Assembly (NCBI GenBank): GCA_949840805.1
Contig: CATKXR010000007.1
Coordinates: forward strand, 62,001-126,000
DNA length: 64,000 bases
Source of the DNA: an uncultured Lachnospiraceae bacterium
GTDB lineage: Bacteria > Bacillota > Clostridia > Lachnospirales > Lachnospiraceae
Direction: 5' to 3'
Position 1 is the stretch's first letter. Every line of letters begins with the position of its first letter. The notes under the pieces were generated by a model that did not search any database, was not told where the DNA came from, and worked only from the letters and a program-made list of their open reading frames with translations. The position numbers were made by a program, and so were the translations under genes. This document shows positions 22,715 to 27,529 of the stretch, in pieces.

Positions 22715-22806
22715 TATACACGTGAGACAGATCATTTGCCACCACGGTTCCCGTCTTTCCATAAATACACCGAATCATTTGGCAAATAAGTATGCTTGCG
22801 AGTATA
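22715..22806 (+). repeat. Dispersed ~92-bp inverted-repeat element, copy 1
   Basis: TATACACGTGAGACAGATCATTTGCC...CGAATCATTTGGCAAATAAGTATGCTTGCGAGTATA; matches copies 2-4. Confidence 0.8.
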
Positions 22807-24627
22807 GAAGGATACATCGTCCGGACGGCTGCCTTTGAAAACCATTGCCGCCAAAACAGGAATGCAAATCATAATGCACAACATATACCTGACAAGAATA
22901 CACGGCCCAAACACCAGGGTGAATTCATAGCTGGCAAGAAACAACGGAAGAACCAGGAACCTGTATTTTCTTTTGGCAGCCAGGATTCCGGCGCCGACCG
23001 CCACGCACCAGCTATAAAAGGAGGTATAAAAAAATACGGACAATCCTGGCAGGTGTTTTTGTATGTTTCCATCCGTAAACCAGGAATAAAAATTTTTCAG
23101 GATCGGGATCTTGCTTCTGGTTTCCACAAGATGGGCCTCATCAAAGGGCGGTGATATTTTGTACTCCACATAACAACTGGAGTCTCCGCCCATATACCAC
23201 AGCCCCATCATGTTATAGGCCGGAGATTTCACATATTCTCCCGGGAACTGCTTTCCCAGCCGCAGCCATAGCTTTACAAAGTCAGCCATCCGGAAATTTT
23301 CCATGCGGATGCCTGATTTTACCGGGTCTGACACGTAATACTTATATCGCAAAAGGCAGCTTTCATCAAAATAAGACAGCAGTTTTTCCTTGTCTTCCGG
23401 AAGAAATTCATCCGTATGATATACATAAGAACGGGCCATCTGCTGCATTGGCAGGCTCATCATCTCTGCCTTACTGCCTTTTTTTGCCTGAAGGCCTTTT
23501 TCCATGGCAATGAACAGGACCTGGGTCACTGCCATGCACACGATGAGAAGCCCTATGGCTTTTAAAAGGAATCTTCCGTCCCTGCGCTTCCATTTTGCCG
23601 CTGCCCATGCCAGGGCAAGAACCAGGCCCATGACTCCCAGGCCATAGACGGCGTTGTTGCGGAACAGGCACATGAACACGGCGCAGGCCAGAAAGAAAAT
23701 GAGCTTTGGCCCTCTGTAAAAGGTTTTTTCGGCCGTCATTTCACAGACACCGACGAACACCAGAAGGAAGAATCCGGCAAAGGGGATATCCTTTGTGGTG
23801 CTGATGCTCAAGACAGGGAAAAACGGGAACAAAAGGAAAAAGAGCCCGGTTCCAAAAACCAATGCCATATGAGTTTTTTGTTTTACCAGAAACCGGATGG
23901 CATAGGCCATAGTCCCGGTAAGAAAAAGAAGCTGAACCACACAATAGAGCAAAACCCCCGTATTGTAGGAACCGCCCAGGATCTTTCCCAATTCAAACAG
24001 GCCGCCGCTAAGCAGCGTATGGATCAGGGGATGATGCGTGTTAAAATCCCACTGGGCAAACTGCTGCCACTGCCACACCATGTCATAACAGTATAAACCA
24101 GGGTAAAATGCCAGCAGGCAGAGCAGGTATCCTATGGATAAAATCCCCCAGGCAAGGAGAAACGCCCGGTTTTCCGGCCTGATTTTATGGTCTTTATAGA
24201 AAGCTTCGTCTGTCGTCTGTGCCAGAGACATGTGCAGGATCCGGTAAAAAAGCGGTTCCGCCACAAAAGCCATGACCGGGGAAGCAGCCATTATGGCCAG
24301 GATTCCCTTAAGTCCCAGGCTGACGCCGCCTCTGGTTGCTTCCAGCCTCATAGCGCCGCCTAGAAGTTCCGTAAAGGTAAGGGCCAGCGCCATCCCGTAA
24401 GCTATGGCAAAATCTCTTTTTTCTTCCTGCCAATGTCTGTATACATGGGGGAAAATCCAAAGTCCAAAGAAAAACACCCCCAGGGAGATGGCCGCCTTAT
24501 TGAAAAACACGATCTCTTCTAAGCCGTATACGCGGATAATCATGCTGACTGAAACCATCAGCCAGGCAGAAGCGATCGCCTTTCCTGTTTTTAACATGCT
24601 ATATTCTTTCATTTTTCGTGTCTCCAC
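22732..24627 (-). CDS. Polytopic membrane protein (DUF6020-like / glycosyltransferase-39-like)
   Basis: Multiple TM helices, LYCYDMVWQWQQFAQWDFNTHHPLIHTLLSGG motif; last ~25 codons derive from repeat copy 1. Confidence 0.65.
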   Translation of the reverse strand: METRKMKEYSMLKTGKAIASAWLMVSVSMIIRVYGLEEIVFFNKAAISLGVFFFGLWIFPHVYRHWQEEKRDFAIAYGMALALTFTELLGGAMRLEATRGGVSLGLKGILAIMAASPVMAFVAEPLFYRILHMSLAQTTDEAFYKDHKIRPENRAFLLAWGILSIGYLLCLLAFYPGLYCYDMVWQWQQFAQWDFNTHHPLIHTLLSGGLFELGKILGGSYNTGVLLYCVVQLLFLTGTMAYAIRFLVKQKTHMALVFGTGLFFLLFPFFPVLSISTTKDIPFAGFFLLVFVGVCEMTAEKTFYRGPKLIFFLACAVFMCLFRNNAVYGLGVMGLVLALAWAAAKWKRRDGRFLLKAIGLLIVCMAVTQVLFIAMEKGLQAKKGSKAEMMSLPMQQMARSYVYHTDEFLPEDKEKLLSYFDESCLLRYKYYVSDPVKSGIRMENFRMADFVKLWLRLGKQFPGEYVKSPAYNMMGLWYMGGDSSCYVEYKISPPFDEAHLVETRSKIPILKNFYSWFTDGNIQKHLPGLSVFFYTSFYSWCVAVGAGILAAKRKYRFLVLPLFLASYEFTLVFGPCILVRYMLCIMICIPVLAAMVFKGSRPDDVSFYTRKHTYLPNDSVYLWKDGNRGGK

Positions 24628-24762: not shown

Positions 24763-24906
24763 GTATACTCTTTCGGGCATCCCCTAATGCATGCCCTTCG
24801 GGCGGGCGTGCTCCGTCAGGCTCCGCACGAAAAGGTATACCCTTCCGGGCATCCCCTAATGCATGCCCTTCGGGCGGGCGTGCTCCGTCAAGCTCCGCAC
24901 GAAAAG
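24763..24906. repeat. Tandem duplication of a 72-bp GC-rich unit
   Basis: Units 24763-24834 and 24835-24906 differ at about 3 positions; each contains GCATGCCC-ttcgggc-GGGCGTGC (8 bp with one G-U). Confidence 0.85.
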
Positions 24907-24974
24907 GTATGCATTATCGTGCAGTACTATCCATAGGCCAATATTGTTAAGTGAAAGATTTTTCCAAAGGGTCC

Positions 24975-25112
24975 GCAGGAGAAGAGGGACAGAACGTTTT
25001 CAGACGCGCTCCCACTCCGTTTTTCACGTAGCGGTACTAAGGCTGCAAAAAACGCAGCCTAAGTGCCGACGTGAAAAGAGGGTCTTCAAACGTTCTGTCC
25101 CTCTTCTCCTGC
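24975..25112 (+). repeat. 138-bp long-hairpin element A
   Basis: Arms GCAGGAGAAGAGGGACAGAACG.../...CGTTCTGTCCCTCTTCTCCTGC; core AGCGGTACTAAGGCTGC-AAAAAAC-GCAGCCTAAGTGCCGACG. Confidence 0.8.
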
Positions 25113-25163
25113 TACATTATCGGCATACTTAATGGAAGGCGTTGCTCCCCCATAAAACGGCCA

Positions 25164-25225
25164 ATAACGTAGCCTGGTCTGTTACCCGTACCCTGGGGTA
25201 CAGGTAAACGTCCGGGCTATGTTAT
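25164..25225. repeat. Structured inverted repeat between the two 138-bp hairpins
   Basis: ATAACGTAGCC (25164-25174) / GGCTATGTTAT, 11 bp with one G-U; inner GTACC-CTGG-GGTAC hairpin. Confidence 0.55.
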
Positions 25226-25283
25226 CTGCTATTCTGTGAATAGTAGACAATACAGGTTATGGTTCAGGCCTGTCAGAAAAGCA

Positions 25284-25421
25284 GCCTGGCCGTGTTTCCT
25301 ATTCCCATGAGGGGCCTCTGCCCCGCCGGTCCTTAGCCCGCGTTTTTTGCGGGCTTAGTACCGCTGCAGGGGCAGCAAGAGTGAGAACGTACCCTCATGG
25401 GAATAGGAAACACGGCCAGGC
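25284..25421 (-). repeat. 138-bp long-hairpin element B (inverted relative to A)
   Basis: Perfect 30-bp terminal arms GCCTGGCCGTGTTTCCTATTCCCATGAGGG / CCCTCATGGGAATAGGAAACACGGCCAGGC; reverse-complement core AGCGGTACTAAGCCCGC-AAAAAAC-GCGGGCTAAGGACCGGCG. Confidence 0.85.
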
Positions 25422-25506
25422 GGACCTTTTGGGATACCTATAAAATACAGTAATCAATGCGGTCAGCTTTTGTATGTATTTTCCCTAAAATGATGAAGCT
25501 TCCATT

Positions 25507-26763
25507 TTAATCTGCAAGACAGTGCTGGCAGCTCACCCGGTATACCTGGATGGTCCTGTCGTTCCGGCTGCTGAAATAAATATAATCTCCCTTATGGCTG
25601 TAAATCGGGTGAGGATGGGCGTCCTGTCCCAGCCAGTCGCTTTCATGGCGGCATAAAGGCTGCCATTCCATTTTCCCATTTTCCCAGTCAACATTCTGTA
25701 TGGAAATATAGGCCCCGTCTTTTTTGTGGGGATCCGGCCCGTTGTCCGTGCTGTTTTCAAAGACTGCTTTGATCTCTCCGGGAAATTTGAAATAGCCGTC
25801 ACAGACGAGATGGCCGAAATGGTCCATGGTAAAATGGCCGTAGGCATCGTAGTCTTCGGGGAGTGAGATCTCCCAATAGCCGCGAGTCTCCATATCTACC
25901 TTTCCCACAAAAGCCGGGCCATGGCTGTAAGCGCCGTGATAGATGACTGCTTTTCCGTCATCCTGCCACATTTCATGGCATACCCAGTCATGACGGCTGC
26001 GCGTATGTCCATTGTGTTCCACGCCTTCTGTGCGTACTCTGGAAATTTCATCCCGGCGATGGTCATAAAGCCAGATACGGCGGATACCGCAGTCAAAACT
26101 TGCCCATTCGTGGTTATATAAGATCTGTTCATGGTCAGCCGGGTTAAACTGTACATGGGTAATCCAGCAATCCGGAACCGTTTTTTCATATAAAAGGCTG
26201 CCGGTGGCTGTGTCATACACACAGAGATAGCTGTTTAAATGTTCTTTTTGTACACGTCCGTCAATATCGTAGACCGGGCGTTTATCCAGTCCGCTGCCTT
26301 CGGTTTCCGGATCATAGTCCAGGCATCGGCCGTCGGTCATAGGCACACAGAGCCGTGTGCCGTCTGCGCTTACATGGGTGAAGGCCGTCATGCGGCCCTG
26401 GGGGACGGTATTTAAGATCCGTTCTTTTCCTTCAAAATCCGAACAACAGATATGGTTGTCCTGGATGAAATAGACCAGGTTCCGGCTGCAGTCCAGGCAT
26501 ACACTGGCTTTTCCCAGCCCATAGCCAGGCGTGTTCTCAAAATAGACATAGCTTTTGAGGGTGCCGTGGGTGTTGTGGGAGAGCTGTATTTCCTGGCCTG
26601 TCTCCATGTCATGGCGGAATATGTTGGGGACGCCGGTGCGGTCGCTGATCAGGTAGAGATAGCGGTCATCAGCAGATAAAGAGGAGCAGGTGAAATATAA
26701 CATCTGTGTGTTATAGTCGTCGCTGCCAGAGACCAGTTCCCGCAGGTTAAGAGATCCGGACAT
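25507..26763 (-). CDS. Oligogalacturonate lyase-like beta-propeller protein
   Basis: MSGSLNLRELVSGSDDYNTQMLYFTCSSLSADDRYLYLISDRTG..., YNHEWASFDCGIRRIWLYD, HDWVCHEMWQDDGKAVIYHG; next to uronate-catabolism genes. Confidence 0.75.
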   Translation of the reverse strand: MSGSLNLRELVSGSDDYNTQMLYFTCSSLSADDRYLYLISDRTGVPNIFRHDMETGQEIQLSHNTHGTLKSYVYFENTPGYGLGKASVCLDCSRNLVYFIQDNHICCSDFEGKERILNTVPQGRMTAFTHVSADGTRLCVPMTDGRCLDYDPETEGSGLDKRPVYDIDGRVQKEHLNSYLCVYDTATGSLLYEKTVPDCWITHVQFNPADHEQILYNHEWASFDCGIRRIWLYDHRRDEISRVRTEGVEHNGHTRSRHDWVCHEMWQDDGKAVIYHGAYSHGPAFVGKVDMETRGYWEISLPEDYDAYGHFTMDHFGHLVCDGYFKFPGEIKAVFENSTDNGPDPHKKDGAYISIQNVDWENGKMEWQPLCRHESDWLGQDAHPHPIYSHKGDYIYFSSRNDRTIQVYRVSCQHCLAD

Positions 26764-26779
26764 GGTAAAACCCTCCTTT

Positions 26780-27529
26780 CTAATATCCGTAAGCCAAAGC
26801 GCCGCCGTCCATGGCATAGTCCTGTCCGGTGATATAAGCGCCATGGTCTCCAATGAGGAACAGTGCCAGAGCCCCTAAGTCTTTTGTGTCGCCAAACTGG
26901 TGGACCGGCATACGGGAGAGGATTTTCTCTTTTCTGGCCGGATCCATCACATCGGTAAGCATTTTGCTGGCAAACCAGCCAGGTGCAATGCTGTTGACAC
27001 AGATATTGTCCTGGGCCCATTCCACGGCCAGCCCGCGGGTCATGCCGCACACGGCTGCCTTGCTGGTGCAGTAGGGAACCACTTCAGAAAAACCTAAGTG
27101 GGCGCTCATGCTGGAGATATTGACAATGCGGCCTTTGTGGGCGCTGGCCTTCAGATAGGGGTAACAGATGGCGCTGAGTTTGAACACGCTTTTCACATTG
27201 ACTTCCAGGATCCGGTCAAAATCTGCATCGTCAAAATCTTCGGCACGTTTTTTTGCCGTGGCTCCGGCGTTGTTTACCAGAAAATCCAGGGTATTGCCGT
27301 GTTTGGATGCAAGCCCGGCAATCATGGCCTGCATGGCGGGGTAATCGGTCACATCTCCTTTCAGGTGGACAACGCCCGGATGGGGCGGCGCCATGTCTTC
27401 TTTGGCTTTTCCGGTGCGGCTGATGACGTAGACGGTAGCGCCGGCCCCGGCCAGAGCCTCAGCGATGGCATAGCCTATGCCGCTGGAAGCGCCGGTAACA
27501 ATGCCTGCACGTCCTTTTAATTCCTCCAT
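26780..27529 (-). CDS. SDR family oxidoreductase (KduD/gluconate-5-dehydrogenase-like)
   Basis: GIVTGASSGIGYAIAEALAGAGA, NNAGA, YCTSKAAVCGMTRGLAVEWA, NSIAPGWF. Confidence 0.9.
   Translation of the reverse strand: MEELKGRAGIVTGASSGIGYAIAEALAGAGATVYVISRTGKAKEDMAPPHPGVVHLKGDVTDYPAMQAMIAGLASKHGNTLDFLVNNAGATAKKRAEDFDDADFDRILEVNVKSVFKLSAICYPYLKASAHKGRIVNISSMSAHLGFSEVVPYCTSKAAVCGMTRGLAVEWAQDNICVNSIAPGWFASKMLTDVMDPARKEKILSRMPVHQFGDTKDLGALALFLIGDHGAYITGQDYAMDGGALAYGY

What the first reader, a model, noticed from the sequence alone, without database searches (positions are those of the whole stretch)
24975..25421. Two inverted 138-bp hairpin elements with conserved core but unrelated, self-complementary arms
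Element A (24975-25112) and the reverse complement of element B (25284-25421) are exactly 138 bp. They share position-matched motifs (CTC[CT]CACTC, AGCGGTACTAAG, loop AAAAAAC, CTAAG..CCG[AG]CG), yet the outer arms are entirely different in sequence while remaining self-complementary in each copy, including a perfect 30-bp stem in B. The inner stem also covaries (GGCTGC/GCAGCC versus GCCCGC/GCGGGC). Conserved internal loops with freely changing stems are the signature of a folded RNA (or ssDNA) family rather than a decaying repeat. I do not recognise the class.
Basis: partly seen in the sequence, partly recalled or inferred. Interest (0 to 1): 0.8.

Follow-up and report, generated by a model that had tools for sequence, protein, structure and literature searches.

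The report
Giant mobile palindromes with conserved tip
The two hairpins belong to a large, apparently undescribed family of palindromic repeats scattered through the chromosomes of gut Lachnospiraceae, in which only the structured tip is conserved while the long arms can be almost any sequence provided they mirror each other; they most likely spread as folded single-stranded DNA hairpins, although the enzyme that moves them was not found.

Summary
A (24975-25112, +) and B (25284-25421, -) are 138-nt hairpins that share a core and have unrelated, self-complementary arms. The core is GCGGTACTAAG - stem-loop - CTAAG[T/G][A/G]CCG, preceded by a CGCTYTCGCT mini-hairpin. They are two arms of one composite palindrome (24960-25434). 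The window's genome has 31 core matches. The core recurs in 68 of 395 sampled Lachnospirales genomes, all of them in the window's own family. No match was found in Rfam, phages, plasmids or 2.9 million viral contigs. Across 100 diverse cores, base pairs covary strongly (10 of 17 pairs change on both sides). In Eisenbergiella tayi, copies share the core (median 87% pairwise identity) but have arms near random (57%, shuffled 54%), yet each copy's own arms are 97% complementary. Arm mismatches are G.T and A.C about equally, which indicates upkeep at the DNA level rather than selection for RNA pairing. Copies are dispersed between genes, show no transcription-strand bias, and vary in presence between sister species (one clean 152-bp insertion, no target duplication). 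Best reading: non-autonomous REP/REPIN-like mobile palindromes that move as folded single-stranded DNA, mover unknown; Y1 transposases do not correlate.

The parts
24975..25112 (+). element A: 138-nt hairpin, type A arms (GCAGGAGAAGAGGGACAGAACG..)
   Evidence: near-identical arms in most of the genome's copies
25033..25063 (+). apical core of A: GGTACTAAG-GCTGC-AAAAAAC-GCAGC-CTAAG
   Evidence: alignment A1 and model R1
25284..25421 (-). element B: 138-nt hairpin, type B arms with perfect 30-bp outer stem; a second type B copy is at L012
25332..25362 (-). apical core of B: GGTACTAAG-CCCGC-AAAAAAC-GCGGG-CTAAG
24960..24974 (+). P1 5' strand TTTTCCAAAGGGTCC, the closing stem of the composite; ends with the conserved 5' flank GGTCC
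25422..25434 (+). P1 3' strand GGACCTTTTGGGA; read on the minus strand it ends in the 5' flank GGTCC of B
25113..25283 (.). spacer between A and B with further stem-loops, pseudo-symmetric about its middle (central stem about 25163-25226)
24908..24924 (+). left terminal inverted repeat (TATGCATTATCGTGCAG) of the larger repeat that carries the type A hairpin in this genome
   Evidence: same left end, and an inverted right end GCACGATAAGGTATA, in most other copies; TA target duplication suspected only

Best explanation
These are non-autonomous mobile palindromic elements, a giant REP/REPIN-like family of Lachnospiraceae. The apical core (mini-hairpin, AG bulge, GGTACTAAG..CTAAG helix with an A.A mismatch) is the recognition module of a folded single strand. 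The arms need only be self-complementary and, in the commonest form, about 30-32 bp long, so that the hairpin base (5' flank GTCC or GGAC, 3' tail T[A/G]CNTTTTTGGCA) sits at a fixed distance from the core. Shown: dispersed multicopy occurrence, presence/absence between sister species, conserved core against drifting arms, perfect arms that decay with equal G.T and A.C mismatches. Inferred: movement through a single-stranded DNA hairpin whose stem mismatches are repaired, or template-switch correction after insertion, so that arms are perfect in each copy while their sequence drifts. The enzyme is unidentified. In the window two such hairpins sit head-to-head in the two arms of a larger palindrome, as REP sequences do in REPINs.
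For: Copy number: 31 core matches in the own genome against 1 for the reversed control; 20 and 28 in two sister species; 0-1 in most others of the genus. Over 40 places in E. tayi. Clean insertion: L102 carries 152 bp (hairpin plus 3' tail) between ATCGTCCG and CCG, where L094 is empty, without target duplication. Other sites are absent, half-deleted or filled in the sister species. E. tayi: core identity median 87%, arms 57% against 54% shuffled, within-copy arm complementarity 97%. At one orthologous locus of E. tayi and G067 the core is kept but the arms differ. Outer-arm mismatches A.C 101, G.T 88 (also 104 and 78). In the own genome arm positions switch A-T to G-C or C-G to T-A as pairs, with few single mismatches. 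No gene-strand bias (51:51 upstream), convergent gaps (23) above divergent (10). Arm length peak at 30-32 bp and 5' flank GTCC/GGAC. Head-to-head pairs recur. Template switching is a published route to compensatory stem changes (PMC8794818, abstract seen).
Against: No transposase or other gene family is enriched beside the elements. Several complete genomes with 10 or more copies have no Y1 transposase at all. Only one insertion junction is clean; other intergenic comparisons are blurred by divergence or deletion. The family is absent from phages, plasmids and viral contigs, unusual for an actively jumping element. At one orthologous site the element is better conserved (a few differences, two of them a compensating pair) than its flanks, which would also fit a host function.
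Confidence: 0.55

Rival explanations
1. A structured noncoding RNA family: the transcript folds, the core binds a protein or ligand, and the long dsRNA stem is a scaffold.
For: Strong covariation and strand-specific unpaired conserved bases in the core; G.U excess over A.C in the inner stem, 60 to 25, and U-G at 35 of 100 sequences in one core pair.
Against: Outer arms show no G.U excess; no fixed orientation to genes; no Rfam match; dozens of copies with presence/absence turnover. No transcript data available here.
Confidence: 0.18
2. Host-domesticated chromosomal sites (BIME/ERIC-like) used for transcription termination, supercoiling or nucleoid binding; the core binds a host protein and the arms correct each other by template switching.
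For: Intergenic location with more convergent than divergent gaps; chromosome-only distribution; core kept while arms drift; one orthologous copy better conserved than its flanks.
Against: Copy number swings from 0 to 28 or more within one genus, and full-length gains or losses between sister species.
Confidence: 0.17
3. Ordinary TIR-bearing MITEs that happen to be palindromic: the hairpin is passive cargo amplified by a DDE transposase acting on the outer inverted repeats (TACCTTATCGTGCAG here, GGGTGCAGATAAAAAA in Eisenbergiella).
For: In the own genome most copies lie inside a larger repeat with terminal inverted repeats; some Eisenbergiella copies share an outer end.
Against: The outer repeats differ between genera while the core is conserved across the whole family; the L102 insertion is hairpin plus tail without such repeats or a target duplication. 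It does not explain core conservation.
Confidence: 0.1

Closest known systems
REP elements / REPINs mobilised by RAYT (TnpA-REP, Y1) transposases
   Same: Chromosomal, intergenic, multicopy palindromes with a short conserved 5' tag; head-to-head pairs; thought to move as folded single strands (PMC3116915, PMC8266576, PMC3733652)
   Different: 138 to over 300 nt instead of 20-40 nt; conserved structured apex with free arms rather than a conserved short hairpin; no GTAG tag; no Y1 gene flanking or correlated
CGTC-tagged palindromic repeats (PMC3733652)
   Same: Tagged palindromes with an unpaired 3' tail and no known dedicated transposase
   Different: Those have 8-9 bp stems and were reported from Proteobacteria, Chlorobi, Bacteroidetes, Spirochaetes and Thermotogae; here the tag is GTCC/GGAC and the hairpin is several times larger
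MITEs / foldback elements (BOX, RUP, NEMIS, bcr type; from my own knowledge)
   Same: Non-autonomous dispersed repeats with inverted repeats that can fold as RNA or DNA
   Different: Conservation is at the apex, not at the termini; arms unrelated between copies
Integron attC sites (from my own knowledge)
   Same: Recognition by folded single-strand structure with unpaired landmark bases and freely varying stems
   Different: No conserved R boxes at the base, no cassettes, no integrase seen; the conserved part is the apex
Rfam structured RNA families
   Same: Covariation pattern
   Different: No family reaches its gathering score; the weak twister-P3 hit (16.6 bits, E 2.4) is at chance level

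Membership tests
REP/REPIN-RAYT system | short (20-40 nt) palindrome with 5' GTAG tetranucleotide | tested here: not met
   138-nt and larger hairpins; 5' flank GTCC/GGAC
REP/REPIN-RAYT system | Y1 (RAYT) transposase gene in the genome, flanked by the repeats | tested here: not met
   Y1 hits in 5 of 12 high-copy and 7 of 12 no-copy genomes; none among recurrent neighbours
REP/REPIN-RAYT system | multicopy, intergenic, chromosomal, often head-to-head pairs | tested here: met
IS200/IS605-type non-autonomous element | insertion 3' of a fixed short target without target-site duplication | tested here: inconclusive
   one clean junction (L102/L094) after GTCCG, no duplication; other sites unclear
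MITE (DDE-type) | conserved terminal inverted repeats with target-site duplication | tested here: inconclusive
   TIR present around the type A copies of the own genome with a suspected TA duplication, not shared with other genera
Structured noncoding RNA family | covariation of base pairs beyond shuffled and slid controls | tested here: met
   cells paired 92.3% against 80.3% shuffled, covariation score 0.335 against 0.134, 0 of 500 shuffles, for the core only
Structured noncoding RNA family | G.U tolerated over A.C in all stems | tested here: not met
   inner stem 60:25, but outer arms 88:101
Structured noncoding RNA family | discrete transcript | not testable with these tools
   no expression data

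The most novel reading that the evidence does not exclude
A new class of genetic element in which a conserved folded apex is copied with replaceable, perfectly mirrored arms, made or renewed for each copy by an unknown fold-back synthesis or hairpin-repair machine. The strongest form would be that the individual arms carry information, as guide-like double-stranded hairpins each with its own target.
Probability: 0.12. Interest if true: 0.9.

Novelty: new variant of a known kind. Interest (0 to 1): 0.62.

Why it matters
An unnamed repeat family with tens of copies per chromosome sits in many Lachnospiraceae, a dominant group of gut bacteria. It separates what must be conserved (a folded apex) from what need only be symmetrical (the arms). 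It is therefore a natural test case for how palindromes keep their arms matched, and for mobility by single-strand folding without a known transposase. It is also a warning that stem covariation need not mean RNA: here much of it appears to arise at the DNA level.

Tried and rejected
Rfam, gathering and relaxed thresholds: nothing beyond chance; the twister-P3 likeness is weak and conflicts with the GGTAC/GTACC pairing. Y1/RAYT as mover: no correlation. Recurrent neighbour genes (reverse transcriptase, transposase, TnpB): none; recurrent neighbours are housekeeping and transporter families or the palindrome's own translation. Phage, plasmid or viral origin: no match. Cis-regulatory RNA or attenuator: no orientation bias. 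Arms as copies of local host DNA: at the L295 and other sites both arms are absent from the sister species. Arms of one E. tayi copy copied from elsewhere in that genome: no other match. An ORF between head-to-head pairs was not searched for systematically: the spacers I read are mostly short (44-437 bp) and differ between genomes, and one 781-bp spacer (L389) may hold a host gene. Literature searches for the motif strings and for Lachnospiraceae palindromes gave nothing relevant; the library lacks most subscription papers.

Full report
Observation. B has a perfect 30-bp outer stem and A a 36-nt arm pair at 89%. They share the core and differ completely in the outer arms. They lie in the gap between two minus-strand genes (22732-24627 and 25507-26853) and form one composite: closing stem P1 (24960-24974 with 25422-25434), A, further stem-loops, B. 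The composite is pseudo-symmetric with its own reverse complement.

Family in the same genome. The window lies in a 5.0-Mb draft assembly (152 contigs) that holds 31 matches to GGTACTAAG-N12-26-CTAAG, against 1 for the reversed control. Most are type A copies with nearly the same arms, carried inside a larger repeat with terminal inverted repeats; many stand at contig ends, as repeats do in drafts. One further type B copy exists (L012). Among 44 distinct type A arm pairs, variable positions change as pairs (G-C 22, A-T 18, with 2 A.C and 2 G.T at one position; C-G 34, T-A 10 at another).

Family elsewhere. Sister species have 0 to 28 copies. A covariance model of 100 diverse cores finds 68 of 395 Lachnospirales genomes, all in one family, and in a sample of the class only that family plus one contig-end hit. 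There are no hits in phages, plasmids or viral contigs, and no Rfam family.

Structure. The core pairs covary far beyond both controls: 92.3% of cells paired against 80.3% shuffled and at most 42% slid; covariation score 0.335 against 0.134. Conserved unpaired features are an AG bulge, an A.A mismatch and a mini-hairpin CGCTYTCGCT that itself covaries. The outer stem most often measures 30-32 bp from the core to a base marked by a 5' GTCC/GGAC flank and a 3' tail T[A/G]CNTTTTTGGCA.

Arms. In Eisenbergiella tayi over 40 places share the core. In 27 copies with complete arms, core identity between copies has median 87%, arm identity 57% (shuffled 54%), and within-copy arm complementarity 97%. 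At one orthologous locus the core persists while the arms differ between two species. Arm mismatches over the family are A.C 101 and G.T 88 (104 and 78 with a looser definition). RNA-level selection would favour G.U. In the inner stem G.U does exceed A.C, 60 to 25. The arms are therefore matched at the DNA level; the core is read as a folded strand. The sequences are related, so these counts are not independent events.

Mobility. Site L102/L094 is a clean 152-bp presence/absence, hairpin plus tail, after GTCCG, without duplication. Other comparisons show absence (L088, L096, L113, the L295 site), or one-sided remnants (L094, L097, L099, L116), in the sister species. Whether a given absence is a failure to gain or a loss cannot be settled site by site; palindromes delete easily. 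One orthologous pair is better conserved than its flanks. No neighbour gene family explains movement, and Y1 transposase is absent from seven of twelve high-copy genomes.

Mechanism. I favour a REPIN-like single-strand hairpin mobile element: the core is the recognition structure, and the hairpin intermediate is repaired to perfection, so arms are perfect at birth and drift from copy to copy. Template switching at the palindrome after insertion (described for RNA hairpins in PMC8794818) would give the same arm pattern and may act as well. The head-to-head arrangement seen here recurs in several other genomes, one pair enclosed by a perfect 17-bp stem. What is shown: family, structure, arm behaviour, dispersal, turnover. 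What is inferred: single-stranded DNA intermediate, recognition by the core, a trans-acting enzyme.

Verdict. A real and apparently undescribed repeat family; RNA nature not shown; works like REP/REPIN elements but fails two of their defining features.

Noticed in passing
window 24763-24906: Two tandem 72-bp copies (96% alike) of another palindromic repeat (GTATACCYTTYCGGGCATCCC..GCACGAAAAGGTAT); related units flank many other copies in this genome.
   Followed up: partly
L109 (G020:C29): Tandem 3'-truncated copies of the element's 5' half (GTCCGTCCCTGAG..CGCTCGCGCTTAG + AAATTGACAATCC) upstream of a full copy.
   Followed up: no
L352, L371, L372, L378, L338, L335 (Eisenbergiella): Several long palindromes share the outer end GGGTGCAGATAAAAAA, others GTTACTATTCA: two terminal types around the same core.
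   Followed up: no
E. tayi copies L345-L383: Left (5') arms are mostly pyrimidine rich (fraction about 0.6-0.7) in spite of unrelated sequence.
   Followed up: no
L144, L206: Single hits in MAGs labelled Selenomonadaceae and Muribaculaceae; may be binning contamination rather than transfer.
   Followed up: no
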